A stretch of 53,894 nucleotides of DNA from a virus. Each line of letters starts with the position of its first letter. Within the stretch, counting starts at the first letter, position 1. The position numbers and the translations under genes were made by a program. Below the pieces are notes generated by a model that had not been told where the DNA came from, did no database searches, and saw only the letters and a list, made by a program, of their open reading frames with translations. Of this stretch, positions 5,297 to 48,441 are shown one piece after another. The stretch covers positions 1-53,894 of IMG/VR virus record IMGVR_UViG_3300050119_000052; one strand, given 5' to 3'.

Positions 5297-5299
5297 GGA

Positions 5300-5367
5300 A
5301 CACTCAGCGGAGACGCCCGTCTGCATCCTGGGTGACGAAACAAATCTGGGGCATCTCCGCTGAGTGC
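5300..5367 (-). repeat. GNCACCCA stem-loop element, type C, copy 1
   Basis: Read on the minus strand this 68-base element is a 20-base arm (GCACTCAGCGGAGATGCCCC), then AGATTTGTTTC, GTCACCCA, GGATGCAGAC and a 19-base return arm. It obeys the same rule as the arrays at 22142-23985: unpaired C, A-N9-C, core, N9-C. The arms pair over about 17 of 19 positions. A TAGACT box (5375-5380 on the complementary strand) lies 7 bases upstream of the element in its own sense, as in the other two type C copies, and could be a -10 hexamer. It fills the gap between two tail genes. Confidence 0.85.
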
Positions 5368-5416
5368 CGCCCACAGTCTAACTGACTGAGCCGCGCAACC
5401 CAAAGGGGGACTTGGA

Positions 5417-14061: not shown

Positions 14062-16323
14062 GTGGCTGTTGCATTCGACGCGGTCGGCCCGTCAGCGGCG
14101 GGCACCGACACGTTCGTCTTTTCCGGCACGACCGGCTCACTCACGTGGTCGCACACTGTCGGCGCGGCCGGCACCAACCGCTGCTTGTTCGTCGCTGTCT
14201 CCTTCGGTAACGAGGGGGGCAGCGACGCCTCGACGGCGGTCACCGTCACCTATGCCGGTGTGTCCATGACGAGTATCGGCGTGGTCCACGCCGACAACTC
14301 CACGGTCGGTTTCGTTCAATTGTTCGGTCTCGTCGCGCCTGCGACCGGCGCGAACAACGTCGTCGTTTCCGTCACTGGCATTCCGACAGCGGCGACGGAC
14401 AACAACACGATCATCGGCGGGTCGGTCAGCTTCACTGGCGTCAACCAGACGACCGGGTGGGGCACAGGCGTCACCGCCTACGGCAACTCGGCCGCTCCCA
14501 GCGCCGCCGTCACGGGCGGCTCGACGTCGGAGATGGTCATCGACGCCGTCACCAGCGGTACCGGTGGCACCACCTCGACTCAGACGAACCGCTGGACGCT
14601 CAACGCGAACACCTATTCCGGGGCGGGTAACTCGGCTTCTTCGACAGCGGCCGGTAGCGCCTCGAGCGTCACCATGTCGTACTCGATCACCAGCGACTAC
14701 TGGGGGATCGTCGCGTGCCGCGTCGAAGCGGCCAGCGGCACGATCACGGCTACGGGTTCGATCACCTTGTCGGGTGCCGACGTCTGGGACGAGCCGGCCA
14801 GCGGCAGCCTCACACTCACGGGCGCGGCGTCCACTTCCGGGCGGGCGACCGCGTCGGGGGCACTGTCGCTCAGCGGTGCCGGCACCTGGAACGAGCCGGC
14901 CAGCGGTAGTTTGTCGCTCGCCGGTACAACGACGTGGAACGAACCCTCTAACGATTCGCTCTCCTTGTCCGGCGCCGCGTCCAGCGTCGCCCACGCGACC
15001 GCGTTAGGCAGCCTGTCCCTCACGGGTGCAGCGACCTGGTCGACCGGTTCGGCCGGATCCGTTACCTTCTCCGGCGCCGCATCGGGTGCAACGGAACCGA
15101 CCGCAGCCGGCGCGCTGACTCTCAGCGGCGCCGCCACGTGGGACGAACCCGCCAGCGGCTCACTGTCGCTATCCGCCGCATCGACCTGGTCGGAACCAGC
15201 GTCGGGGTCGCTCAGCCTGACCGGCGCCGTCAACAACGCCATCACCGCGGCCGGTGCACTGACCCTCACGGGTGCCGCCACCTGGTCCGAGCAGCCAACT
15301 GATTCGCTGTCTCTCACGGGGGCCGCGTCGGCGACTGGGAACCCCGCCGCCGCTGGCAGCCTGTCGCTGGCCGGTGCCGCTACGTGGAACGCCACCGCCG
15401 CCGGTTCCCTATCACTGTCGGGCGCGTCGACCTGGTCCGAGCAACCATCCGGCGCTATCACCCTGTCCGGTGCGGGCACCTGGACCGAACCCGCCAGCGG
15501 CGCTATCACGCTCACAGGTGCGACCACCTGGTCCGAGCAGCCATCCGGCAGTCTGACCTTCAGCGGGTCCGCATCGGGTAAGGCGGAACCGACCGCCGCC
15601 GGCAGCGTCACGCTGTCCGGGGACGTCAACAACGCCATCATCACCACCGGTTCGTTGTCCCTTACCGGCGCCGCATCGGCGAGCGGCGAACCGACCGGCA
15701 GCGGCTCAGTCACCCTCACCGGCTCATCGACGTGGGACGAACCGGCGAGCGGTGCGATCAGCCTGGCCGGTTCGGCCACGATCACCCAAACCACCACCGC
15801 GTCGGGTTCGGTCACACTGACCAGCACCGCGTCGGAGTTCGTGACCCCGTCGGCGGCTGGGTCGGTTGTTCTCTCCGGTGCCGCTCTCGCCTACACCACG
15901 ACCACCACCGCCGGGGCGATCACACTAACCGGGGTCGCAGCACCGTACGTTCCCGCAACCGCGTCCGGGTCGATAACCCTCACCGGGACGGCGACTGTCG
16001 CCTCGGCGACACTCACCAAGGTCACGGTCACCGGAGACTTCAACAACACCGCACTAAGCAACGCGATTGGCACGGTGGCGTTCACACCGTCGAGCCCCCT
16101 ACGCGCACCGGCAGCAGGGATATTCGTCGTCCCGTCCACGAAGATCATCCAACTGGCCAACGGCGCGTTCGCGGTGCAGCTGATAGCGACCGACAACCCG
16201 GGGTTGACCCCGCCTGGTTGGACGTATTACTGCGAGATCCGGGTCACCGGGTCACCCGTCAAGTACTTCACGTTCAGCCTGCCGTCCGCACCTTCACCGG
16301 TCGACCTTTCGACTCTGATCTAG
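14062..16323 (+). CDS. Adhesion protein with long tandem GSLSLSGAATW repeats
   Basis: The 753-residue product starts at GTG behind GAGAGGCGG. Residues 1-225 form a beta-sandwich-like head. Residues about 230-645 contain more than twenty degenerate repeats of 14-17 residues with the consensus SGSLSLSGAATWxEP, a pattern expected for a stacked beta-solenoid or fibre shaft. Residues 651-753 form a module (VTVTGDFNNT to STLI) that is clearly related to the first 100 residues of the next protein. There is no enzymatic motif. It is probably a tail fibre or host-binding shaft. Confidence 0.75.
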   Translation: MAVAFDAVGPSAAGTDTFVFSGTTGSLTWSHTVGAAGTNRCLFVAVSFGNEGGSDASTAVTVTYAGVSMTSIGVVHADNSTVGFVQLFGLVAPATGANNVVVSVTGIPTAATDNNTIIGGSVSFTGVNQTTGWGTGVTAYGNSAAPSAAVTGGSTSEMVIDAVTSGTGGTTSTQTNRWTLNANTYSGAGNSASSTAAGSASSVTMSYSITSDYWGIVACRVEAASGTITATGSITLSGADVWDEPASGSLTLTGAASTSGRATASGALSLSGAGTWNEPASGSLSLAGTTTWNEPSNDSLSLSGAASSVAHATALGSLSLTGAATWSTGSAGSVTFSGAASGATEPTAAGALTLSGAATWDEPASGSLSLSAASTWSEPASGSLSLTGAVNNAITAAGALTLTGAATWSEQPTDSLSLTGAASATGNPAAAGSLSLAGAATWNATAAGSLSLSGASTWSEQPSGAITLSGAGTWTEPASGAITLTGATTWSEQPSGSLTFSGSASGKAEPTAAGSVTLSGDVNNAIITTGSLSLTGAASASGEPTGSGSVTLTGSSTWDEPASGAISLAGSATITQTTTASGSVTLTSTASEFVTPSAAGSVVLSGAALAYTTTTTAGAITLTGVAAPYVPATASGSITLTGTATVASATLTKVTVTGDFNNTALSNAIGTVAFTPSSPLRAPAAGIFVVPSTKIIQLANGAFAVQLIATDNPGLTPPGWTYYCEIRVTGSPVKYFTFSLPSAPSPVDLSTLI

Positions 16324-22043: not shown

Positions 22044-22127
22044 TTGGTGCTGGCTTTGGTCGGGTTCTGTGTGGCGTACGTGGTGACCCGGCGGGTCCTA
22101 GCCCGTCTACGAACGGATCAGCGATGA
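22044..22127 (+). CDS. Possible tiny membrane protein before array I
   Basis: A 27-residue frame (TTG start) reads VLALVGFCVAYVVTRRVLA, one hydrophobic helix with basic flanks. Its stop overlaps the ATGACC that opens the first stem-loop array. There is no clear ribosome site. It is listed because the ATGA overlap and hydrophobic content are non-random, but it may not be a gene. Confidence 0.3.
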   Translation: MVLALVGFCVAYVVTRRVLARLRTDQR

Positions 22128-22141
22128 CCGCAACTAAGACT

Positions 22142-22259
22142 CCCCACCACGCCAAGACGGCGACGTCACCCAGAGGTCCAGCGCGTGGTGGGGCCAAAAC
22201 TTCCAGCTTCCCCGGCAGCCAACCGGAACACGACACCCAACGGCGACTCGCTGCCGGGG
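22142..22259 (+). repeat. Stem-loop array I (two GNCACCCA elements)
   Basis: Element 1 (22143-22192) has type A arms, CCCACCACGCC and GCGTGGTGGG, and holds AAGACGGCGAC, GTCACCCA, GAGGTCCAGC. Element 2 (22210-22259) has type B arms, CCCCGGCAGCC and GCTGCCGGGG, and holds AACCGGAACAC, GACACCCA, ACGGCGACTC. Each is exactly 50 bases with a 10-11 bp perfect stem and a 30-base loop. The array is preceded by ATGACC and followed by GGGGGAACAC-ATG of the next gene. The whole stretch is also open in the frame of that gene, but low complexity and the repeat rule argue against coding. Confidence 0.9.
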
Positions 22260-22282
22260 ACCACTACTCAGCGGGGGAACAC

Positions 22283-22756
22283 ATGACCGGATTCAAAGAA
22301 ATCGTAGGCGACGTGCTGGAACACAGCGCCCGCAACGACCCCAACGAACTCGCAGAAGAGATCATGGGTCGGCTCACCCTGCCGCAGATCCGTGAAGGGC
22401 TAGCGCTCGCCCTCCCGGAGTACGTCCGACACGCGTTCCATCGCATCACCTACACCCCCGACCCTGACCCGTCTCGGCGAGTCAGGCAGGCGGCGGGGGC
22501 GTGGGATCGGCACAAGCAGCTCCTCGCTGTCCGCAAGCTGGGGTTGGAGGACTGGAAGCCGTTCGGGGAGTTCACCGCTGCGGATTGCACTGCGGCGGCG
22601 GAGTTGCGGCGGTTGAAGGCGTCGGAGTCGACGGCGCGAGCGGTCAAGTTCGACGCGACGGCTGAGGCTGTTGTGGCTGCGGGTGTCGCGTGTGTCGCGG
22701 ACCTGCCTGCTGATGTGCTTCTCGGTTTGTGGGGTAGCCATGACCTCGGCGAATAA
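22283..22756 (+). CDS. Early-region protein of unknown function between arrays I and II
   Basis: The 157-residue protein starts at ATG behind GGGGGAAC, directly after array I; the frame is open 53 codons further upstream through the array, which I exclude. The sequence is helical. The segment KLGLEDWKPFGEFTAADC followed by ELRRLKASESTARAVKFDATAEA resembles a common actinophage early hypothetical family. Its end overlaps an ATGACC that opens array II. No function is recognised. Confidence 0.7.
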   Translation: MTGFKEIVGDVLEHSARNDPNELAEEIMGRLTLPQIREGLALALPEYVRHAFHRITYTPDPDPSRRVRQAAGAWDRHKQLLAVRKLGLEDWKPFGEFTAADCTAAAELRRLKASESTARAVKFDATAEAVVAAGVACVADLPADVLLGLWGSHDLGE

Positions 22757-22761
22757 GACCT

Positions 22762-23048
22762 CCCCGGCAGCCAGACCGCCTACGTCACCCACAAGGGCAC
22801 CGCTGCCGGGGACCCAAACCACCGCCACGCCACGCTGGTCGCGTCACCCACATCTGGTTCGCGTGGCGGTCCTATTCGACCCCGGCAGCCAAAGCCGCGC
22901 CGTCACCCATGTCGTGGGCGCTGCCGGGGTCCATATTCCCCCACCACGCCAGAGGTCGACCGTCACCCAACGCCCACACGCGTGGTGGGTTCACACGTCC
23001 CCGGCAGCCAGCCCGCAGCCGTCACCCAGACGAGGCACGCTGCCGGGG
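22762..23048 (+). repeat. Stem-loop array II (five GNCACCCA elements, B-A-B-A-B)
   Basis: Elements are 22762-22811 (B), 22821-22870 (A), 22880-22929 (B), 22940-22989 (A) and 22999-23048 (B), each exactly 50 bases, spaced by 9, 9, 10 and 9 variable bases. Variable N9 pairs are GACCGCCTA/CAAGGGCAC, CGCTGGTCG/CATCTGGTT, AAGCCGCGC/TGTCGTGGG, GAGGTCGAC/ACGCCCACA and GCCCGCAGC/GACGAGGCA. All five cores are GTCACCCA. The A stem at 22821 has compensatory changes (ACCGCCACGC with GCGTGGCGGT), which supports base pairing. The interval is otherwise empty and ends 22 bases before the IS110-like gene. Confidence 0.95.
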
Positions 23049-23070
23049 ACCTCACTCATCGGGGGACCAC

Positions 23071-23805
23071 ATGACTGACCTCTACGACCCACTCCTCGGC
23101 AACCTCGCCGCCACAGTCGACGACCTCGAGATGGTTCGGAAAGCCGCCGAGAACCGTCTACGGCAGTTGACTAGGACCGGCGTCGACAAAGACGGCACCT
23201 CACGCGGCTTCGGACTACCCGAAGACCACCTATCCGTCCAAGCGGCCACAGTCATCGTCGACGGACTCAAGCGAGTCGAACACCAAGCGATCCTGCTGTT
23301 ACAGCGCCAACTCCGCACCCACCCACTACACCCGTGGATCAAGGCCCAAAACGGGCTGGGTGAGAAAACCGTCGCCCGACTGCTCGCCGCGATCCAGGAC
23401 CCGTACTGGAACGACCGACACGACCGCCCCCGCACCGTTGGTGAGCTGTTCAAGTTCTGCGGTGTCGCCGGCCCCGGTCAGCGTAAGCGGAAGGGTGAAC
23501 GGGTCACGTGGTCGCCTGAGGCGCGGATGCGATTGCACGTGATCATCGAGCCGATCGTGAAGAATCGGCGGTCGCCCTATCGGGCGGTTTACGACCAGGC
23601 GCGGGTCAAGTACGCGGAGAAGACGCACACGGAGGTGTGTGTGCGGTGCGGCCCGGCGGGTAAGCCTGCGCTGGTTGGGTCGCCGTGGCCGCCGGCTCAT
23701 CAGCATGCGGCCGCGATGCGCCTGGTGAAGCGTGCAGTTCTGCGCGGGCTGTGGGAAGAATCCCGCCGGTTGCATGGTGCCGACGAACTGAAGGTCGCAG
23801 CATGA
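23071..23805 (+). CDS. Stand-alone IS110 Transposase_20-like protein
   Basis: The 244-residue protein starts at ATG behind GGGGGACC, right after array II. Residues 89-110 form a helix-hairpin-helix (QNGLGEKTVARLLAAIQD), followed by RTVGELFKFCGVA, RKGERVTWSPEARMRL and KNRRSPYRAVYDQARVKYA, the order of the C-terminal Transposase_20 domain of IS110 transposases. The N-terminal 88 residues are helical and lack the DEDD RuvC-like domain, and the SG motif holding the catalytic serine is not seen. A CVRC-x15-HQH set could bind zinc. It ends KVAA. There are no IS ends. It may bind the neighbouring stem-loops; that role is inferred. Confidence 0.75.
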   Translation: MTDLYDPLLGNLAATVDDLEMVRKAAENRLRQLTRTGVDKDGTSRGFGLPEDHLSVQAATVIVDGLKRVEHQAILLLQRQLRTHPLHPWIKAQNGLGEKTVARLLAAIQDPYWNDRHDRPRTVGELFKFCGVAGPGQRKRKGERVTWSPEARMRLHVIIEPIVKNRRSPYRAVYDQARVKYAEKTHTEVCVRCGPAGKPALVGSPWPPAHQHAAAMRLVKRAVLRGLWEESRRLHGADELKVAA

Positions 23806-23816
23806 CCACTCAAACT

Positions 23817-23985
23817 CCCGCCACGCCAGCCATCTGCCGACACCCAGCTCTCTCGCGCGTGGCGGGGCTCAACTACCCCGGCAGCCATGGGCCTGGCGTC
23901 ACCCAAGCGATGACCGCTGCCGGGGTCCTAAACGAATCGTCGCGCCAAGTCCCAGCCGTCACCCATCAGAGGGCCGCCCGTCGGA
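23817..23985 (+). repeat. Stem-loop array III (three GNCACCCA elements, last degenerate)
   Basis: Element 8 (23817-23827 arm to 23866, type A with CCCGCCACGCC/GCGTGGCGGG) holds AGCCATCTGCC, GACACCCA, GCTCTCTCGC. Element 9 (23876-23925, type B) holds ATGGGCCTGGC, GTCACCCA, AGCGATGACC. Element 10 (23936-23985) keeps the loop rule (AAGTCCCAGCC, GTCACCCA, TCAGAGGGCC), but its arms pair at only 6 of 10 positions. The array opens with ATGACC overlapping the IS110-like stop and ends just before the next start. A 69-codon frame spans it with ATGA overlaps at both ends. Confidence 0.85.
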
Positions 23986-24007: not shown

Positions 24008-24631
24008 ATGACCAGCACCGAAGAGGCCAGCGGCGATCTGCGACCGTGCCCGCGCTGCAATGGACGGGGGACCGTTCACAGCAAAGAGGTTGTCCACGGC
24101 ACGCTCTACGCGGCCACTCGTCTCCGCTGCCGATGCGATCTCTGCTCTGCTGCTCGCCGGGATTACGACTCAGCTCGATTGGGTCACCGGATCCGGTCTC
24201 GCGCAGAGCAGAAGCAGGCGCGACTCGAGTCGGCCGGAGAGTTCATCACCCTTCACCAGTCAGGCCTGACGATCGCGGAGATAGCGGCCAAGGTGAACCG
24301 GTCGATCAACTTCGTTGCTGGCGCGTTGCATGAAGCGGGATATCAGCCGCGGCGGGGTATTACCGCGACTTTCCTCGAGCACGGAACCCGCGCGTACAAG
24401 GTCCGCACAGGCTGCCGCTGCGATCTGTGCCGCGCTGCCGTCACCCGCGAGAAGAAGGAAGCGCGCCAGCGGCGCCACGAAGCCATGCTCGCTGGCCAAG
24501 TGAACCCGCCGCACGGATCGACCAGCACCTACAGCAACTACACCTGCCGCTGCGATCTGTGCCGCGCTGCGTGGTCGGTCCGTATGCGCGAACAACGCCA
24601 GCGCCGGAAGCCACCGAGAGGCCGGTCATGA
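24008..24631 (+). CDS. Zinc-binding protein with three CRCDLC motifs and a central helix-turn-helix
   Basis: The 207-residue protein follows array III. It has CPRCNGRG near residue 14 and three copies of the pattern HGT..Y...CRCDLCRAA (about residues 30-50, 125-145 and 175-195), each with three Cys suited to zinc. Between copies one and two, LTIAEIAAKVNRSINFVAGAL is a helix-turn-helix. The repeated Cys module is familiar from actinophage early proteins of unknown role. Nucleic-acid binding is likely, and its position makes it a second candidate partner of the stem-loop arrays. Confidence 0.7.
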   Translation: MTSTEEASGDLRPCPRCNGRGTVHSKEVVHGTLYAATRLRCRCDLCSAARRDYDSARLGHRIRSRAEQKQARLESAGEFITLHQSGLTIAEIAAKVNRSINFVAGALHEAGYQPRRGITATFLEHGTRAYKVRTGCRCDLCRAAVTREKKEARQRRHEAMLAGQVNPPHGSTSTYSNYTCRCDLCRAAWSVRMREQRQRRKPPRGRS

Positions 24632-34000: not shown

Positions 34001-34317
34001 GCCAAGAACAGCATCAAGGGATAGAAGACGCCCAGCCGGATCTACGGGCTGAGCCACTGAGCCGTTCGGTCGATCAGGTGATGATGGACTACGGCCATGG
34101 CCGTTCGGACTTCGATCCGTACGGCGAGATGGCTGTCCTGATCGCCGAGGTTGTGCGTGTTCGGGCTGAGCGGGATTCGCTGCTCGCAGCACTCACCGCA
34201 ATACGCGCCGAGATCGAACGTGACCTCAAAGAGCGCGGCCAGACATGGACGACAGCCGGCAATCCGCTCGTAGTCCGGTTGGCGGCTCTTCTGGGGAGCG
34301 AGGCTGGCCGTGGCTAG
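33997..34317 (+). CDS. Helical early protein
   Basis: The 106-residue product starts at GTG overlap. The middle region (MAVLIAEVVRVRAERDSLLA) is a coiled coil. Its end shares the junction GTGGCTAGTCAACCCGAAAC with several later genes. The function is unknown. Confidence 0.55.
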   Translation: MSQEQHQGIEDAQPDLRAEPLSRSVDQVMMDYGHGRSDFDPYGEMAVLIAEVVRVRAERDSLLAALTAIRAEIERDLKERGQTWTTAGNPLVVRLAALLGSEAGRG

Positions 34318-34519
34318 TCAACCCGAAACCCCAAAGCGCGCCGAAGAGAATAAGAATGCTCAGCCGGATTTCTCGGATGTCACCCGTTGCGGCTCGGTAC
34401 TAGCAGGTCAGCAGTGTGTCCGGGAGGCCTGCCACTCAGAAAATTGCAGGTATTTAGCGCCTGTTGAATGCTGCGCCAGCGGCTCATGTGAGGTCTGCAA
34501 GCCATGGAGATATCAATGA
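34310..34519 (+). CDS. Cys-rich protein with MASQPET N-terminus
   Basis: The 69-residue product begins with a repeated gene-start block (GTGGCTAGTCAACCCGAAAC) and contains eight Cys (for example CVREACHSENC and CCASGSCEVC), indicating one or two zinc sites. Its stop overlaps the methyltransferase ATG. Confidence 0.55.
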   Translation: MASQPETPKRAEENKNAQPDFSDVTRCGSVLAGQQCVREACHSENCRYLAPVECCASGSCEVCKPWRYQ

Positions 34520-35187: not shown

Positions 35188-35273
35188 AAGACGAAGCAAT
35201 GCACGACGATACGGACTTGCGGGCGAGTGACGCTTGGCAGCATGAGCAGATCCGAGGTGGTTTGGGTGGCTAG
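35184..35273 (+). CDS. 29-residue acidic peptide
   Basis: GTG overlaps the methyltransferase stop. The frame reads VKDEAMHDDTDLRASDAWQ and ends GGLGG, with its stop inside the repeated block that starts the next gene. Confidence 0.35.
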   Translation: MKDEAMHDDTDLRASDAWQHEQIRGGLGG

Positions 35274-35655
35274 TCAACCCGAAACCGCAGGTGACGTTTT
35301 CGATCCGATGCAAAACGCCGGTCATCCGTCGTGGTTCGACATGCCCGAGATCGGCGAAGACGGCATCGCGCATCACGTCGAATACACGCCTGGCGTTGGT
35401 CATCAATGCTTGCCTGATTGCCCAGCGACTGACGGCCATGCGTTTGGGGGTGGTTTGGGCCCGCGAATCGTCGTGACGGTCACTTTGGATGGCCAGCCGA
35501 TCTTCATCGGATCACCCCGTGCCGACAGTAATGACCTATTCCGCCTCGACGACAAGGCAGGCGAGCCCTCATGGCTGACCTGCTGCATCCCTGATCTCAG
35601 TGTTCGGCTGTCGGTGCCTTCTGTCCGTGAACACCCCGAAGGAGCGCAGCAATGA
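35266..35655 (+). CDS. Early protein with MASQPET N-terminus
   Basis: The 129-residue product starts at GTG within the repeated start block. A central part has CLPDCPATDGHAFGGG and then a beta region IVVTVTLDGQPIFIG. Two Cys occur late (TCCIPDL). No family is recognised. Confidence 0.55.
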   Translation: MASQPETAGDVFDPMQNAGHPSWFDMPEIGEDGIAHHVEYTPGVGHQCLPDCPATDGHAFGGGLGPRIVVTVTLDGQPIFIGSPRADSNDLFRLDDKAGEPSWLTCCIPDLSVRLSVPSVREHPEGAQQ

Positions 35656-35825
35656 GCGCGGTGAGTGGCACCCCGGTGGCTAGTCAACCCGAAACCCCAA
35701 AGCCGGACGGTAAGCGCATCGAAGAGGACGTCCGCGATCTGCGGTTCTCGGACGAGGCGCGTAAGTACATGCCGGAGCTGACCGACAGGCAGGCTGCATT
35801 CGTGGATTGGTTGGTGCACCGATGA
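35652..35825 (+). CDS. 57-residue protein carrying the repeated block internally
   Basis: ATG overlaps the previous stop, and residues 9-16 (VASQPETP) come from the repeated start block, whose GTG could be the true start. The remainder is helical (RIEEDVRDLRFSDEARKYMP). The stop overlaps the next ATG. Confidence 0.45.
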   Translation: MSAVSGTPVASQPETPKPDGKRIEEDVRDLRFSDEARKYMPELTDRQAAFVDWLVHR

Positions 35826-36277
35826 GCAATCCGGAGATCAAAGCGTCGGTGCGGCGTCTGACAGCGGCGTTGATCGCCGTGTCGGACAGGCTCGATAAGC
35901 CTTATACAGATCGCCCCGAACTATCGCCATGGACGCGATACGTGCAACCCCGGCTAGCTGAGGTGCGTTATTACGTAGGACTTGACTCGGAGGTACCTGA
36001 TGAGGGCGATCCCGGATCCGCCGCTGCACAACCTGCTGATCTGTTGCGGACCTGGACCGTGCCACCCGAACTGCGCAAGGGAGATCTGGCGCCAGACGTA
36101 CTTCCCCACACCAGAGAAACCGCGTCCAAAGCCGAAGCAGCGTTAGCCGAAATCCGTGAACTAGTTCACGATGTCCATGGTCATGGCGCTGACAGCCTGG
36201 AAGGCGAGATCGACCGGCTGCGAGCCATCATCAGTCGTATCGCCGCGGCCACGTTTGGGGGTGGTTTGGGTGGCTAG
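35822..36277 (+). CDS. Helical early protein
   Basis: The 151-residue protein is mostly helical (VRRLTAALIAVSDRLDKPYT; AEAALAEIRELVHDVHGHGA). It ends in ATFGGGLGG, encoded by the repeated GGTGGTTTGGG stretch before the next gene start. The function is unknown. Confidence 0.55.
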   Translation: MSNPEIKASVRRLTAALIAVSDRLDKPYTDRPELSPWTRYVQPRLAEVRYYVGLDSEVPDEGDPGSAAAQPADLLRTWTVPPELRKGDLAPDVLPHTRETASKAEAALAEIRELVHDVHGHGADSLEGEIDRLRAIISRIAAATFGGGLGG

Positions 36278-36464
36278 TCAACCCACCGACCATCAGGAAG
36301 AGAGTGCGACGCTTCGGGTAGCTCTAGCCCGAATCCGCGAGCTACATCGACTCGCTGCCCCGATCGATAACAGATTCGGTCCACCGGACTGGTGTAACGA
36401 GTGCGGCGGTGACGTGGTTTGGCCGTGTCCTACTGCTGAGATTGTGGAGGCTGTTGATGTCTGA
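36270..36464 (+). CDS. 64-residue protein with MASQPTD N-terminus
   Basis: It starts in the repeated block. Helix then PPDWCNECGGDVVWPC, a CxxC-x7-C zinc-like motif also seen in other early phage proteins. It overlaps both neighbours. Confidence 0.5.
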   Translation: MASQPTDHQEESATLRVALARIRELHRLAAPIDNRFGPPDWCNECGGDVVWPCPTAEIVEAVDV

Positions 36465-44314: not shown

Positions 44315-44321
44315 TAGCAAA

Positions 44322-44389
44322 GCACCCAGCGGAGAAGCCCGAAAGGGAAATGGGTGACGTTTTGGAGATGGGGCTTCCCCGCTGAGTGC
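44322..44389 (-). repeat. GNCACCCA stem-loop element, type C, copy 2
   Basis: Minus-strand order is GCACTCAGCGGGGAAGCCCC, ATCTCCAAAAC, GTCACCCA, TTTCCCTTTC and the return arm. The arms pair at 17 of 19 positions. A TAGACT box lies 7 bases upstream in its sense. The two N9 blocks (TCTCCAAAA, TTTCCCTTT) are AT-richer than those in the arrays. It occupies the whole portal-protease gap. Confidence 0.85.
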
Positions 44390-44419
44390 AGCCACAAGTC
44401 TACCTGAAAGGAGGTCGCC

Positions 44420-45394
44420 GTGACAGACGACGCAAGCGACGCAGCCGAGGAGAAGGCTCTGCCGAAGTCGGTCGAGTGGCGCAAGACGCGCGCCATGGAA
44501 CTGCGAGGCGCCGAGCGTCGCACCCATCTGGAGCATGTCGAGTTCCGCGACAACCCAGACGGGTCCCTGCATCTGTCCGGTTACGCATCGGTTACGAATA
44601 CTCCATACGATATGGGATGGTATTCCGAGTCGATCTCCCGCGGCGCGTTCGCGAAAACCCTCGCCGAAAACCCCGACGTGCAACTCCTCGTGAACCACGC
44701 CGGGCTGCCGTTGGCGCGCACCAAGTCGGGCACTTTGCAACTGTCTGAGGACAACACGGGGCTGCGGGTAGACGCTGATCTCGACCCGGAAGACCCCGAC
44801 GTGCAGTCGCTGTCGCGGAAGATGAAGCGCGGCGATATCGACCAGATGAGCTTCGCGTTCCGTGCGACCAGGCAGTCCTGGGACGAGGACTACACCGACC
44901 GGCAGATCACCGAATGCGATATTCACCGCGGCGATGTCAGCGTTGTGAATCAGGGTGCGAACCCGAGCACGTCCGTGTCGGTGCGCACTGAAGACGCACT
45001 GGTGGCGTTGCGGCACATCGGGCACCTCGGATTCCTCGAGGCGATGCTCGACATTCGGCGCTTCTCCGGCACTCCGCTGGAGCAGCGGGCCGGGATGACG
45101 CTGTCCGCGGCCACCACCGAGGTACTGACCCAGGTGCTGGCCCTCATTGCGACGGCGGACGAAGCAGTCGACGAGGCTCAGCCGCTCCTGGCCGATCTGA
45201 TGGGCGTCCCCAACCCCGACGAGCCCGAAGAGGACGCGAGCGATGCGACCGTCGATGACACCAGCGACGAAGGTGACGACGGCGACCAGGGCGGCGACGA
45301 GGGCGAACAGGACTCGGCCCGCAGCGTGTCGCTGGCGTTGGAAGCCCGCCGCCGCCTAGAAGCGCTCCGCTACCCGAAGAAGGACGCAGCATGA
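44420..45394 (+). CDS. Prohead protease
   Basis: The 324-residue protein starts at GTG behind AAAGGAGGT, an ideal ribosome site. SGYASVTNTPYDMG, VQLLVNHAG (His) and GDIDQMSFAF (Ser) are the HK97 U35 protease landmarks in residues 50-155. A long acidic C-terminus (DEPEEDASDATVDD and further) could be a scaffold segment. It processes the capsid precursors. Confidence 0.9.
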   Translation: MTDDASDAAEEKALPKSVEWRKTRAMELRGAERRTHLEHVEFRDNPDGSLHLSGYASVTNTPYDMGWYSESISRGAFAKTLAENPDVQLLVNHAGLPLARTKSGTLQLSEDNTGLRVDADLDPEDPDVQSLSRKMKRGDIDQMSFAFRATRQSWDEDYTDRQITECDIHRGDVSVVNQGANPSTSVSVRTEDALVALRHIGHLGFLEAMLDIRRFSGTPLEQRAGMTLSAATTEVLTQVLALIATADEAVDEAQPLLADLMGVPNPDEPEEDASDATVDDTSDEGDDGDQGGDEGEQDSARSVSLALEARRRLEALRYPKKDAA

Positions 45395-46539
45395 CCAGCG
45401 TCGAAGTCGTGTCCGAGCCGCTCACCTACGAGCGGCACGGCCCCCACTCGTACTTCCAGGACATGTATCGGGCGCAGGAAGATCCTCGCGCCTTTGACCG
45501 CTTGTCCCGGCACAGCGCGGAGATGCGGGTCGTTGGTGAGAAGCGGGAGGCACGTGCCCGTCAGGCGCTCGACGCTGGTGACCTGGAGTACCGGGTCAGC
45601 CCCGACACAACTCAGGGCACGGGCGGGTACCTCACCGTGCCACTCTGGCTCGATCAGTTGTTCGCGACGGCGCCGCGCCCGGGCCGGATCTTGGCAGCTC
45701 TGATCGAGGCTGCGTTCGACCTGCCTGACGGTGTGTCGTCGATCAACGTCCCGATTCTGACCGCTGGCACGGCCGTGCAGCCTGTGCTCGACGACTCCGC
45801 GGCGCCGAGCGCTGATGTCACCGACGCGGCGGGTTCCTCGACCGTCGTCACCCTCACTGGCCAGTCTGATTGGCCGATCCAGGCACTGGAGCAGTCCCCG
45901 GCCGGTGCCGCCCTGGATTGGGTGATCTTCACCGACATGGCTGCCGCCTACGACGCCCAACTCGAAACGCAACTCCTCACCGGACTGGGTGCCGCTGCGA
46001 AGCAACTAGTTGGTGTCCTCAACGTCGCGGGCACGGTCGGCGTCACCTACACCAACGCGTCGCCGACCGGCGCGTTGCTGTACCCCTATCTCGGCCAAGC
46101 GACGGCTCGGGTCGGTAACAACCGCAATCTGCCGCCGGAGGCGTTTCTGATGCGGACGGCTCGGTGGGCGTGGCTCGCTACGTCTGAGGACACGCAGGGC
46201 CTCCCCTTTTTCTTGCCCACGTTTTTTCTCGGCGACGACGAGGACACCCCGGATGCGCTCGGTGGTGTCGTCGGGATCCCCGTGTTCTGTGATGACGCGT
46301 TGCCCGCGAATCTCGGTGCGGGCGGCAATCAGGATGTCATTGTCGCGTTGCGACCGTCGGACATGGTCATTTTCGAAGGCACCCCGCAGACCACCGTGAT
46401 GCGTGAGGTGCTGTCCGGGTCGCTCGGTGTCCGCTTCCAGATGCACAACAGAGTTGCTGCGATCACGAATCGCTACCCGTCCGGTATCTCGCCCATTACC
46501 GGGACGGGCCTCGTCGTGCAGTCAGGCTTCAGCTCCTGA
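45391..46539 (+). CDS. HK97-fold capsid protein 1
   Basis: The 382-residue product has RVSPDTTQGTGGYLTVPLWL as the N-arm to E-loop region and REVLSGSLGVRFQMHNRVAA near the end, the Phage_capsid family pattern. It lacks a long scaffolding N-terminus, having only about 55 residues before the likely cleavage region. It is clearly paralogous to the next gene, so it may be a minor or vertex capsomer form. Confidence 0.85.
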   Translation: MTSVEVVSEPLTYERHGPHSYFQDMYRAQEDPRAFDRLSRHSAEMRVVGEKREARARQALDAGDLEYRVSPDTTQGTGGYLTVPLWLDQLFATAPRPGRILAALIEAAFDLPDGVSSINVPILTAGTAVQPVLDDSAAPSADVTDAAGSSTVVTLTGQSDWPIQALEQSPAGAALDWVIFTDMAAAYDAQLETQLLTGLGAAAKQLVGVLNVAGTVGVTYTNASPTGALLYPYLGQATARVGNNRNLPPEAFLMRTARWAWLATSEDTQGLPFFLPTFFLGDDEDTPDALGGVVGIPVFCDDALPANLGAGGNQDVIVALRPSDMVIFEGTPQTTVMREVLSGSLGVRFQMHNRVAAITNRYPSGISPITGTGLVVQSGFSS

Positions 46540-46548
46540 CGCAATGGA

Positions 46549-46616
46549 GCACCCAGCGGAGAAGCCCGCACACCGACTGGGTGCCGCTCATGACCTGGGG
46601 TCTCTCCGCTGAGTGC
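46549..46616 (-). repeat. GNCACCCA stem-loop element, type C, copy 3
   Basis: Minus-strand order is GCACTCAGCGGAGAGACCCC, AGGTCATGAGC, GGCACCCA, GTCGGTGTGC and the return arm. The core differs by one base (GG instead of GT). A TAGACT box lies 8 bases upstream in its sense. It sits between the two capsid genes. The 46617-46782 stretch adds a CCGGGC/GCCCGG hairpin and the ribosome site of the second capsid gene. Confidence 0.85.
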
Positions 46617-46782
46617 CGTCCCCGAGTCTAACCACTAGTCGTTTCACCCCACGCCGGGCCTGTGCCCGGTGCGCGCCGCTGCACCCACGGGTCGCAGCAC
46701 CCGCACCGGACGTGGCGCACCACCTGGGAAATCCAGCAAACCCCCAGAGCGCACGAATGCGCCCGACGCTAGGAGAACAGCA

Positions 46783-48441
46783 ATGGCAGACAAGAAGGAG
46801 CCGACGCTCCTCGAACTTTTGAACGAGCGCCGCCAGAAGGCGTTCGAAGCATGGAGCGGTGAGATCGGCAGGCGGGAGACCGCTGATACCGATTTCGAGG
46901 CTCGCCGCAACGCTACCGACGAGGCTGTGCACCCGACCGACGACGAGGTGACGGCGCACCGTGACGCGCAGGCCGCGTTCCGGGTCCGCTCGGACGAGGC
47001 TGAGGTGGAGTTGCGCGAGTTCGACAAGCGCATCGACGAACAGGGTGAGATCGAGACCCGCCGCGCCGCCGCCGCCGCAGCCAGCAAGGGCAACGCCGAG
47101 GTCGAGTCGGAGCCGCTGACCTATCGCCGCGACAACGCCCACGTACGGTCCTACTACGCCGACCTCGCCGTGGCGATGGTCGACGGGGTGACCTTGTCAC
47201 GCAACAACAAGACCGAGGCCCTGACCCGCCTGAACCGGCACGCCGCCGAGATGGACGTCGAGATCCCGAAGCGGATCAAGGCGGCCGAGGCCCGCGCCGT
47301 CGCCCGGTTCGCGGAGGCCGAGTCCCGGTCCGTGTCGCGCCGCAACGGCGTCACCATGGAAGATGTTCGCCCGCTCGCCTACGACCCGTTCCAGCGGTCA
47401 CGGCGTGGCGCTGAACTGGAGGAGCGGGTCACCCCGAACCGGCAGGACGGCTACGGCGGGTACCTGATCCCACCGTTGTGGCTGCCCGAGGACTTCATCC
47501 CCGGCCTGCGTGCTCAGGGTGTCGCCCGGGACCTGTGCCGGCAAATGGACTTGCCCGCCGGCACCGACAGCATCAATATCCCGAAGTTGGCGAACCTGAC
47601 CGCGGTTGGGTATCAGCAGGCGGACAACTCCGGTGTCGTGACGCAGGACTGGACGGACACGTTCGTTCAGGCCAATGTGAAGACCGCCGCGGGGCAGTCC
47701 GACGTCGCGTTGCAGCTGTTGGAGCAGTCCCCGAACGGCATCACCGACGAGGTGATCACCACTGACCTGCTGGCCGCGTACAACCAGTTCGTTGATCAGC
47801 AGGTGATCTCCGGTGACGGTGTGTCGACGGGGCAGCTCAACGGCGGCCACATCCTCGGGATCTACCCGTCGAGCAACTGGGCGAACACGAACGGCGTGAC
47901 CTACACCGACAGCTCCCCGGCTGGTGTGCACTTCGGTGCTGGCGCGATGGGCCCGTTGGCGTCGAAGATCGCCCGGACTCGTTTCGACGTCGAGGACTTC
48001 GCGATCGTGATGCACGGTCGCCGCTGGTTCTGGTACTCCACGGCGAATGACGTCAACGGTCGCCCGCTCGGTGAGACCCTCGGAGCTGGTCGGTTCCAGG
48101 CGGCGGTCGCTGAAGAGGAACTGGCCGCCTACGGCCGGGTCGGCACCTTGCCGTACCTCGCTGACGCGCCCGTGTACATCGACAACAACATCCCGATCAC
48201 CGACACCGCTGGTGGCGGCTCGGCACAGGACATCGCGATCGGTGCCCTGTGGTCGGACCTGTGGCTGTTCATGGGCGACCTGCGGACGAACGTGTTCCGT
48301 GAGGTTCTCTCCGGCAGCCTCGGTGTCAGGTTCCAGGTCTACAACTACTTCGCGTTCCTCGCGCGGTACGGCCAGTCGATCGCTGTCGCGACCGGCTCCG
48401 GTTTCGCTCAGCCGTCCACCGGCTACGGCGACTACTTCTAA
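46783..48441 (+). CDS. HK97-fold major capsid protein 2 with scaffold domain
   Basis: The 552-residue product starts at ATG behind TAGGAGAAC. Residues 1-115 are a charged coiled-coil delta/scaffold domain (LLELLNERRQKAFEAWSGEI), residues 115-215 repeat the spacer seen in capsid 1 (RLNRHAAEM), and the HK97 fold follows from TPNRQDGYGGYLIPPLWLPE to FREVLSGSLGVRFQVYNYFA. It is the likely major capsid subunit, matured by the upstream protease. Confidence 0.9.
   Translation: MADKKEPTLLELLNERRQKAFEAWSGEIGRRETADTDFEARRNATDEAVHPTDDEVTAHRDAQAAFRVRSDEAEVELREFDKRIDEQGEIETRRAAAAAASKGNAEVESEPLTYRRDNAHVRSYYADLAVAMVDGVTLSRNNKTEALTRLNRHAAEMDVEIPKRIKAAEARAVARFAEAESRSVSRRNGVTMEDVRPLAYDPFQRSRRGAELEERVTPNRQDGYGGYLIPPLWLPEDFIPGLRAQGVARDLCRQMDLPAGTDSINIPKLANLTAVGYQQADNSGVVTQDWTDTFVQANVKTAAGQSDVALQLLEQSPNGITDEVITTDLLAAYNQFVDQQVISGDGVSTGQLNGGHILGIYPSSNWANTNGVTYTDSSPAGVHFGAGAMGPLASKIARTRFDVEDFAIVMHGRRWFWYSTANDVNGRPLGETLGAGRFQAAVAEEELAAYGRVGTLPYLADAPVYIDNNIPITDTAGGGSAQDIAIGALWSDLWLFMGDLRTNVFREVLSGSLGVRFQVYNYFAFLARYGQSIAVATGSGFAQPSTGYGDYF

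What the first reader, a model, noticed from the sequence alone, without database searches (positions are those of the whole stretch)
22762..23048. Strict B-A-B-A-B alternation and 59-60-base period
Neighbouring elements never share the same stem sequence in any array (A-B; B-A-B-A-B; A-B-degenerate), and spacers are 9-10 bases, again about N9. Alternation would prevent arms of adjacent elements pairing with each other and would stabilise the array against deletion. Compensatory changes in the A stem (CACCACGC/GCGTGGTG versus CGCCACGC/GCGTGGCG) support pairing.
Basis: seen in the sequence. Interest (0 to 1): 0.75.

Follow-up and report, generated by a model that had tools for sequence, protein, structure and literature searches.

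The report
Phage hairpin guide-RNA array beside TasA
The alternating hairpins are very probably a small bank of guide RNAs for a recently discovered phage RNA-guided DNA-binding protein (TasA), and cultured phages that carry the same system make its unknown natural targets open to testing.

Summary
The alternation is real. Each hairpin has one fixed plan: palindromic stem, CCA, 9 variable bases, CGTCACCCA, 9 variable bases, CG, stem. Between arrays 2 and 3 lies a 244-aa gene (23071-23805). Its only PDB sequence relatives are TasR and TasH, and its AlphaFold model matches them best. This is a TIGR-Tas locus of the published stem-loop/TasA kind, so the hairpins are predicted dual-guide RNAs. Relatives in many actinophages are often annotated 'transposase'.

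Tests of the finding: in 42 non-redundant loci 0 of 113 neighbouring hairpins share a stem, against 35 of 530 other same-locus pairs (permutation p 0.0005; 0.015 without the window). Stems pair and covary in 169 hairpins picked by loop motif alone. Alternation does not stop next-but-one stems from cross-pairing in a fold of the whole array.

Beyond the finding: (1) among A1-like mycobacteriophages spacers differ 36-72% while tasA differs 2.6% and stems 0-7%; (2) the last bases of the two spacers are complementary in 102 of 208 pairs (about 55 expected); (3) spacer pairs show matched codon phase, suggesting coding targets, though a stricter 67-pair subset did not; (4) three opposite-strand orphan units. 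No target was established; expression and function are untested.

The parts
22142..22193 (+). array 1, unit A: stem, spacers AGACGGCGA / GAGGTCCAG
22209..22260 (+). array 1, unit B: spacers ACCGGAACA / ACGGCGACT
22761..22812 (+). array 2, unit B: spacers GACCGCCTA / CAAGGGCAC
   Evidence: RNA fold z -4.2
22821..22870 (+). array 2, unit A: spacers CGCTGGTCG / CATCTGGTT
   Evidence: RNA fold z -2.4
22878..22931 (+). array 2, unit B: spacers AAGCCGCGC / TGTCGTGGG
   Evidence: RNA fold z -4.6
22940..22989 (+). array 2, unit A: spacers GAGGTCGAC / ACGCCCACA
   Evidence: RNA fold z -2.6
22997..23050 (+). array 2, unit B: spacers GCCCGCAGC / GACGAGGCA
   Evidence: RNA fold z -5.0
23071..23805 (+). 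tasA: solo Nop-domain protein, 244 aa (P0015)
   Evidence: PDB sequence matches only to TasR and TasH; AlphaFold model pLDDT 89.9 best matched by TasH and TasR; phrog_4285 'transposase'
23816..23867 (+). array 3, unit A: spacers GCCATCTGC / GCTCTCTCG
23875..23926 (+). array 3, unit B: spacers TGGGCCTGG / AGCGATGAC
23945..23976 (+). array 3, third unit: intact core (AGTCCCAGC / TCAGAGGGC) with a degenerate stem
   Evidence: stem score 3
5297..5372 (-). orphan unit C1: spacers GATTTGTTT / GGATGCAGA, just after a minor tail gene
44319..44394 (-). orphan unit C2: spacers TCTCCAAAA / TTTCCCTTT, between portal and head protease genes
46546..46621 (-). orphan unit C3: spacers GGTCATGAG / GTCGGTGTG, between two major-head-protein-like genes

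Best explanation
The hairpins are a stem-loop TIGR array belonging to the TasA protein encoded at 23071-23805 in a tailed actinophage. Each hairpin would be transcribed and trimmed to one small RNA that carries two 9-nt guides, each set between CCA (box C) and CG (box D). A TasA dimer would hold it, and the two guides would pair with opposite strands of one short DNA site. TasA has no nuclease domain, so the RNP would bind and bend or block DNA rather than cut it. Different stems on neighbours let each unit fold alone and mark unit positions, while the spacers turn over fast. Shown here: anatomy, pairing, protein family and fold, spacer hypervariability in relatives, neighbour non-identity. 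Inferred from published TasR/TasH/TasA work: transcription, processing, DNA binding. Inferred with little evidence: that targets are coding DNA of competing elements.
For: Unit motif 13 in the window, 0 in 200 shuffles. PDB sequence hits only to TasR 9mty and TasH 21kl: single sequence E 8.5e-9 and 1.7e-8, profile E 3.1e-34 and 1.2e-17. Structure: Foldseek ranks 1-11 are TasH/TasR; VIA Z 18.7 and 18.6, IS621-type about 13, Nop5 7.6. Paper sections read: two 8-12-nt spacers between box C and box D, palindromes in place of edge repeats, nuclease-less TasA, box C = CCA, box D = UG. Homologous loci carry the same units on the tasA strand: 214 forward and 2 reverse in 41 non-redundant loci without the window. 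Spacers differ 36-72% among A1-like phages with tasA 2.6% different. The last bases of spacers A and B covary.
Against: No RNA or binding data. Box D reads CG here, UG in TasR. No target was established: none in the own genome above chance, none in 1.6 Mb of relatives clearly above chance at gaps -2 to 8 with 0-1 mismatch, and 0 of 297 mycobacterial genomes for each of three pairs. Pfam gave no hit. Six of 60 loci examined had no unit by my caller.
Confidence: 0.88

Rival explanations
1. The hairpins are DNA or RNA regulatory repeats (protein-binding sites, terminators or attenuators) with no guide role; the neighbouring gene is incidental.
For: Stable stems; the orphan C units sit between late genes, where attenuators or processing sites would be expected.
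Against: Exact 9+9 spacing, box-like motifs, linkage to tasA homologs in 54 of 60 loci examined, spacers far more variable than stems, covariation of the two spacers' last bases. No Rfam family matched.
Confidence: 0.06
2. An IS110-type transposon with a bridge RNA, or its remnant, as the annotation 'transposase' suggests.
For: phrog_4285 'transposase'; IS621 recombinase matches the model at VIA Z about 13.
Against: The 244-aa protein aligns only with the C-terminal part of IS621 (chain residues 127-314) and has no room for the DEDD domain; it is closer to TasH and TasR; multi-unit arrays are not bridge RNAs.
Confidence: 0.03
3. Alternation is only a by-product of duplication of a two-unit A-B block and is not selected.
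For: A-B blocks recur at about 119-nt steps (D1); Morrissey repeats a two-stem order in two subarrays; the window supplies 16 of the 35 same-stem pairs.
Against: 0 of 107 neighbours share a stem even without the window, permutation p 0.015; duplication of single units would be expected to give same-stem neighbours, and none was seen.
Confidence: 0.45

Closest known systems
TIGR-Tas stem-loop array with TasA (Faure et al. 2025, PMC12045711; Peromyscus gut contig)
   Same: Solo Nop protein, subarrays around the gene, palindromic stems, two short spacers between box C and box D
   Different: Here the loop repeat is nearly fixed (CGNNNCCCA; 9 nt in 198 of 223 units), two stems alternate, the last spacer bases covary, and three orphan units lie elsewhere. 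The supplement was not readable, so table S1 may already list relatives.
TIGR-TasR / TasH (PDB 9mty, 21kl)
   Same: Nop fold, box C CCA, dual short guides
   Different: They carry RuvC or HNH nucleases and dual-repeat arrays; box D is UG in TasR; no obvious spacer A/B covariation was reported for TasR
IS110/IS621 recombinase with bridge RNA
   Same: RNA-binding Nop-like C-terminal part, two-guide loop
   Different: Transposase with DEDD domain and a single bridge RNA per element
Box C/D snoRNP (Nop5)
   Same: Nop fold and box C/D-like guide layout
   Different: Guides RNA methylation with L7Ae and fibrillarin; weak structural match (Z 7.6)

Membership tests
TIGR-Tas, TasA with stem-loop array | Tas-family Nop-domain protein | tested here: met
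TIGR-Tas, TasA with stem-loop array | no nuclease domain (TasA) | tested here: met
   the model aligns over residues 5-238 of 244 with the Nop part of TasH; no room for another domain
[quoted passage not shown]
   units at 22.1-23.05 kb and 23.8-23.98 kb flank the gene
TIGR-Tas, TasA with stem-loop array | two 8-12-nt spacers between box C and box D | tested here: met
   9+9 nt, CCA and CG; in 42 loci CCA before spacer A in 219 of 223, CG after spacer B in 205 of 223
TIGR-Tas, TasA with stem-loop array | palindromic sequence in place of the edge repeat | tested here: met
   154 of 166 motif-only matches have stems; covariation
TIGR-Tas, TasA with stem-loop array | array transcribed and processed to tigRNAs bound by Tas | not testable with these tools
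   needs RNA pull-down
TIGR-Tas, TasA with stem-loop array | RNA-guided DNA binding | not testable with these tools
   needs binding assay
TIGR dual-repeat array | one conserved edge repeat alternating with one loop repeat | tested here: not met
   loop repeat conserved, but the edge position holds variable palindromes
IS110 transposon | N-terminal DEDD recombinase domain | tested here: not met
   protein aligns only to residues 127-314 of the IS621 chain
Box C/D snoRNP | L7Ae kink-turn and fibrillarin partner | not tested
   -

The most novel reading that the evidence does not exclude
In this actinophage branch of TIGR-TasA the two guides of each hairpin are read as one roughly 17-bp site in protein-coding DNA: guide A on one strand and guide B on the other, with both 3' ends meeting at the same central base pair. 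The arrays are fast-changing weapons or regulators aimed at genes of competing phages. Neighbouring hairpins must carry different stems so that each folds alone.
Probability: 0.3. Interest if true: 0.85.

Novelty: new member of a known kind. Interest (0 to 1): 0.62.

Why it matters
TIGR-Tas was described in 2025 mostly from metagenomes, and its authors wrote that genuine targets are hard to identify. Here the stem-loop/TasA form appears with intact arrays in cultured phages of Mycobacterium smegmatis and Gordonia, often annotated as a transposase. Near-identical phages differ mainly in the spacers, so targets, spacer turnover and function can be tested in laboratory strains. The covariation of the last spacer bases gives a first sequence-based clue to how the two guides meet on DNA.

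Tried and rejected
Targets. (a) Own genome, 13 window units: best 2-4 mismatches at gaps 0-3, like mispaired spacers. (b) 220 pairs in 1.07 Mb: four distinct one-mismatch hits at a 2-bp gap, one inside another phage's tasA (L044:4712); not repeated in 0.55 Mb of new sequence, 0 against 0.53 expected, so taken as chance. (c) Exact scans of IMG/VR with gaps 0-2: three A1-phage pairs gave 2, 6 and 0 stretches; three window pairs gave 14, 1 and 0. The 14 are about five unrelated coding contexts at a 2-bp gap plus one at gap 0, no single target gene. (d) Mycobacterial chromosomes: 0 of 297 for each of three pairs; 0 of 2 for a prophage's own pair. (e) 17-mers assuming a 1-bp overlap against 50,697 phage records: four tried. 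Two gave none, one gave 16 of 17 in a Streptomyces phage, one gave 16 of 17 only in the tape-measure gene of two M. smegmatis phages, Arcanine and Rajelicia, which also carry tasA. About two random 16-mer hits are expected in such a library (my estimate), so this is a lead only. The held G004 genome has the homologous site with 2 mismatches to the 17-mer; the other held genomes showed no homologous region by blastn.

Codon-phase test. 220 pairs z +4.9 for A and rc(B) in frame at gap 2 mod 3. It vanished in a strict subset of 67 of 233 (z -0.1; same-strand control z +1.8) but returned in 208 of 233 with the shared base left out (z +4.55; pairs with complementary last bases n=102 z 1.7, the rest n=106 z 4.2). 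I treat it as suggestive. The strict filter probably keeps atypical spacers; this was not tested. The class cannot tell a 1-bp overlap from a 2-bp gap.

Rows dropped: loci sharing 30% or more of spacer pairs with an earlier one (54 with units to 42), and near-duplicate pairs (233 to 208). My caller allows only 9-nt spacers, which may miss divergent arrays. C-unit search in phages found nothing.

Full report
Observation. The window is an IMG/VR virus record of 53,894 bases, an actinophage by its late genes (terminase, portal, protease, head, tape measure) and nearest relatives. At 22761-23050 five hairpins follow each other as B-A-B-A-B with steps of 59, 59, 60 and 59; A-B precedes at 22142-22260 and A-B plus a unit with a degenerate stem follows at 23816-23976. 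All share the plan stem-CCA-N9-CGTCACCCA-N9-CG-stem (one core base varies in some). The core pattern occurs 13 times in the window and in none of 200 Markov-1 shuffles. Each of the five hairpins folds better than dinucleotide shuffles, z -2.4 to -5.0.

Protein. The gene at 23071-23805 encodes 244 aa. Pfam gave no hit and PHROGs gave phrog_4285 'transposase', E 8e-88. phmmer against all PDB chains gave two hits only, TasR 9mty (E 8.5e-9) and TasH 21kl (E 1.7e-8); a 32-sequence profile gave the same two at 3.1e-34 and 1.2e-17. AlphaFold2 with that alignment gave pLDDT 89.9, pTM 0.82. Foldseek ranks 1-11 are TasH/TasR chains, then IS621; VIA-align gave TasH Z 18.7 over 213 residues, TasR 18.6 over 187, IS621-type about 13, Nop5 7.6.

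Known system. Faure et al. 2025 (PMC12045711; sections 4-10, 24, 49 and passages read) describe TIGR-Tas, including stem-loop arrays in which palindromes replace edge repeats, two 8-12-nt spacers sit between box C and box D, and TasA lacks a nuclease. In TasR box C is CCA and box D is UG. The window fits, with CG as box D. Their phage statement cites a mycobacteriophage review. Their supplement could not be read, so I do not claim that these phages are absent from it. My searches (listings only) showed no other paper on actinophage stem-loop arrays in the held library.

Relatives. 84 phage records encode a homolog: 76 Mycobacterium, 5 Gordonia, 1 each Rhodococcus, Arthrobacter, Microcystis (60 listed). 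IMG/VR gave 45 loci and bacterial genomes 4. Of 60 loci examined with my caller (10 phage loci, 45 viral contigs, 4 bacterial, the window), 54 had units and 42 were non-redundant. In the 41 without the window there were 214 units on the tasA strand and 2 on the other. Of 166 core-motif matches found without asking for a stem, 154 have one; the reverse strand gave 5 matches, 3 of them the window's orphans. In 169 motif-only units stem pairs 1-9 are Watson-Crick in 81-94%, shuffle means 30-53%, with many pair types.

Alternation. 0 of 113 neighbouring pairs share a stem, against 35 of 530 other same-locus pairs; within-locus permutation p 0.0005. Without the window it is 0 of 107 against 19 of 500, p 0.015. 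Within one run the same stem recurs at distance 2 in 6 of 57, distance 3 in 2 of 30 and distance 4 in 1 of 15. Most loci have many different stems; the window re-uses two. Growth by two-unit blocks would explain A-B-A-B, and the absence of same-stem neighbours suggests selection, not proved. In the MFE fold of the whole array the first and last B cross-pair, so alternation protects nearest neighbours at most.

Spacer evolution. In 13 distinct arrays of A1-like mycobacteriophages tasA differs by 2.6%. In three unit positions that my patterns could read (12, 11 and 6 of 13 arrays) stem arms differ 0-7%, spacer A 36-65%, spacer B 56-72%, and one spacer A occurs with three different spacers B. That is what a fixed scaffold with changing guides would show.

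Geometry. In 208 non-redundant spacer pairs (of 233) the last base of A and the last base of B are complementary in 102; permutation mean 54.9 (maximum 81 in 20,000), within-locus mean 62.6 (maximum 82 in 5,000); all other 80 cells of the complement matrix have z of 2.8 or less in size. Either both guides read the same central base pair, or the two bases pair in the RNA. Both fit a site in which the 3' ends of the guides meet, which I also derive from the published 8-nt 3' overhang. Faure et al. saw no obvious A/B covariation for TasR. A codon-phase test suggests that A and rc(B) come from one reading frame (z +4.55, 0 of 1000 shuffles; positive control z +8.2), but a strict subset of 67 pairs did not show it.

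Targets. None established; see Tried and rejected. The best lead is one A1-phage unit (locus L031) whose 17-mer matches at 16 of 17 the tape-measure gene of Arcanine and Rajelicia, two tasA-bearing M. smegmatis phages. With about two random 16-mer hits expected per query (my estimate) it is only a lead.

Verdict. A stem-loop TIGR array with TasA. Alternation is confirmed and generalises as 'neighbours never share a stem'. Function is inferred from the family, not shown.

Noticed in passing
window 5297-5372, 44319-44394, 46546-46621 (minus strand): Three lone units with a third, long stem and the same CGNCACCCA core, antisense between late structural genes. In the other fetched genome pieces the only unit clearly away from tasA was one on the plus strand (L106:11988). 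They could be orphan guides or regulators.
   Followed up: partly
window 34310-34337, 35266-35293, 35676-35703, 36256-36298: Direct repeat GTGGCTAGTCAACCC...; two copies identical over 28 nt. Possibly operator or repressor sites.
   Followed up: no
window 24008-24631: Gene after array 3 with repeated CRCDLCRAA-like cysteine motifs and weak matches to HNH, HTH and Lar-type families.
   Followed up: no
window 14724-15730: Long degenerate tandem repeat inside the ORF 14062-16323, probably a repetitive structural protein.
   Followed up: no
window 45391-46539 and 46669-48441: Two consecutive genes both match major head protein phrog_2263, with an orphan unit between them.
   Followed up: no
window 22124-22756, 22671-23078; L009 2653; L012 5791; L016 5569: Open frames run through the arrays, and several annotated phage genes include array units as N-terminal extensions, probably mis-set gene starts.
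   Followed up: partly
L058 3798 against L044 4712: A spacer pair of one phage matches, with one mismatch and a 2-bp gap, the conserved MKAVLKDLW stretch of another phage's tasA; chance is not excluded.
   Followed up: partly
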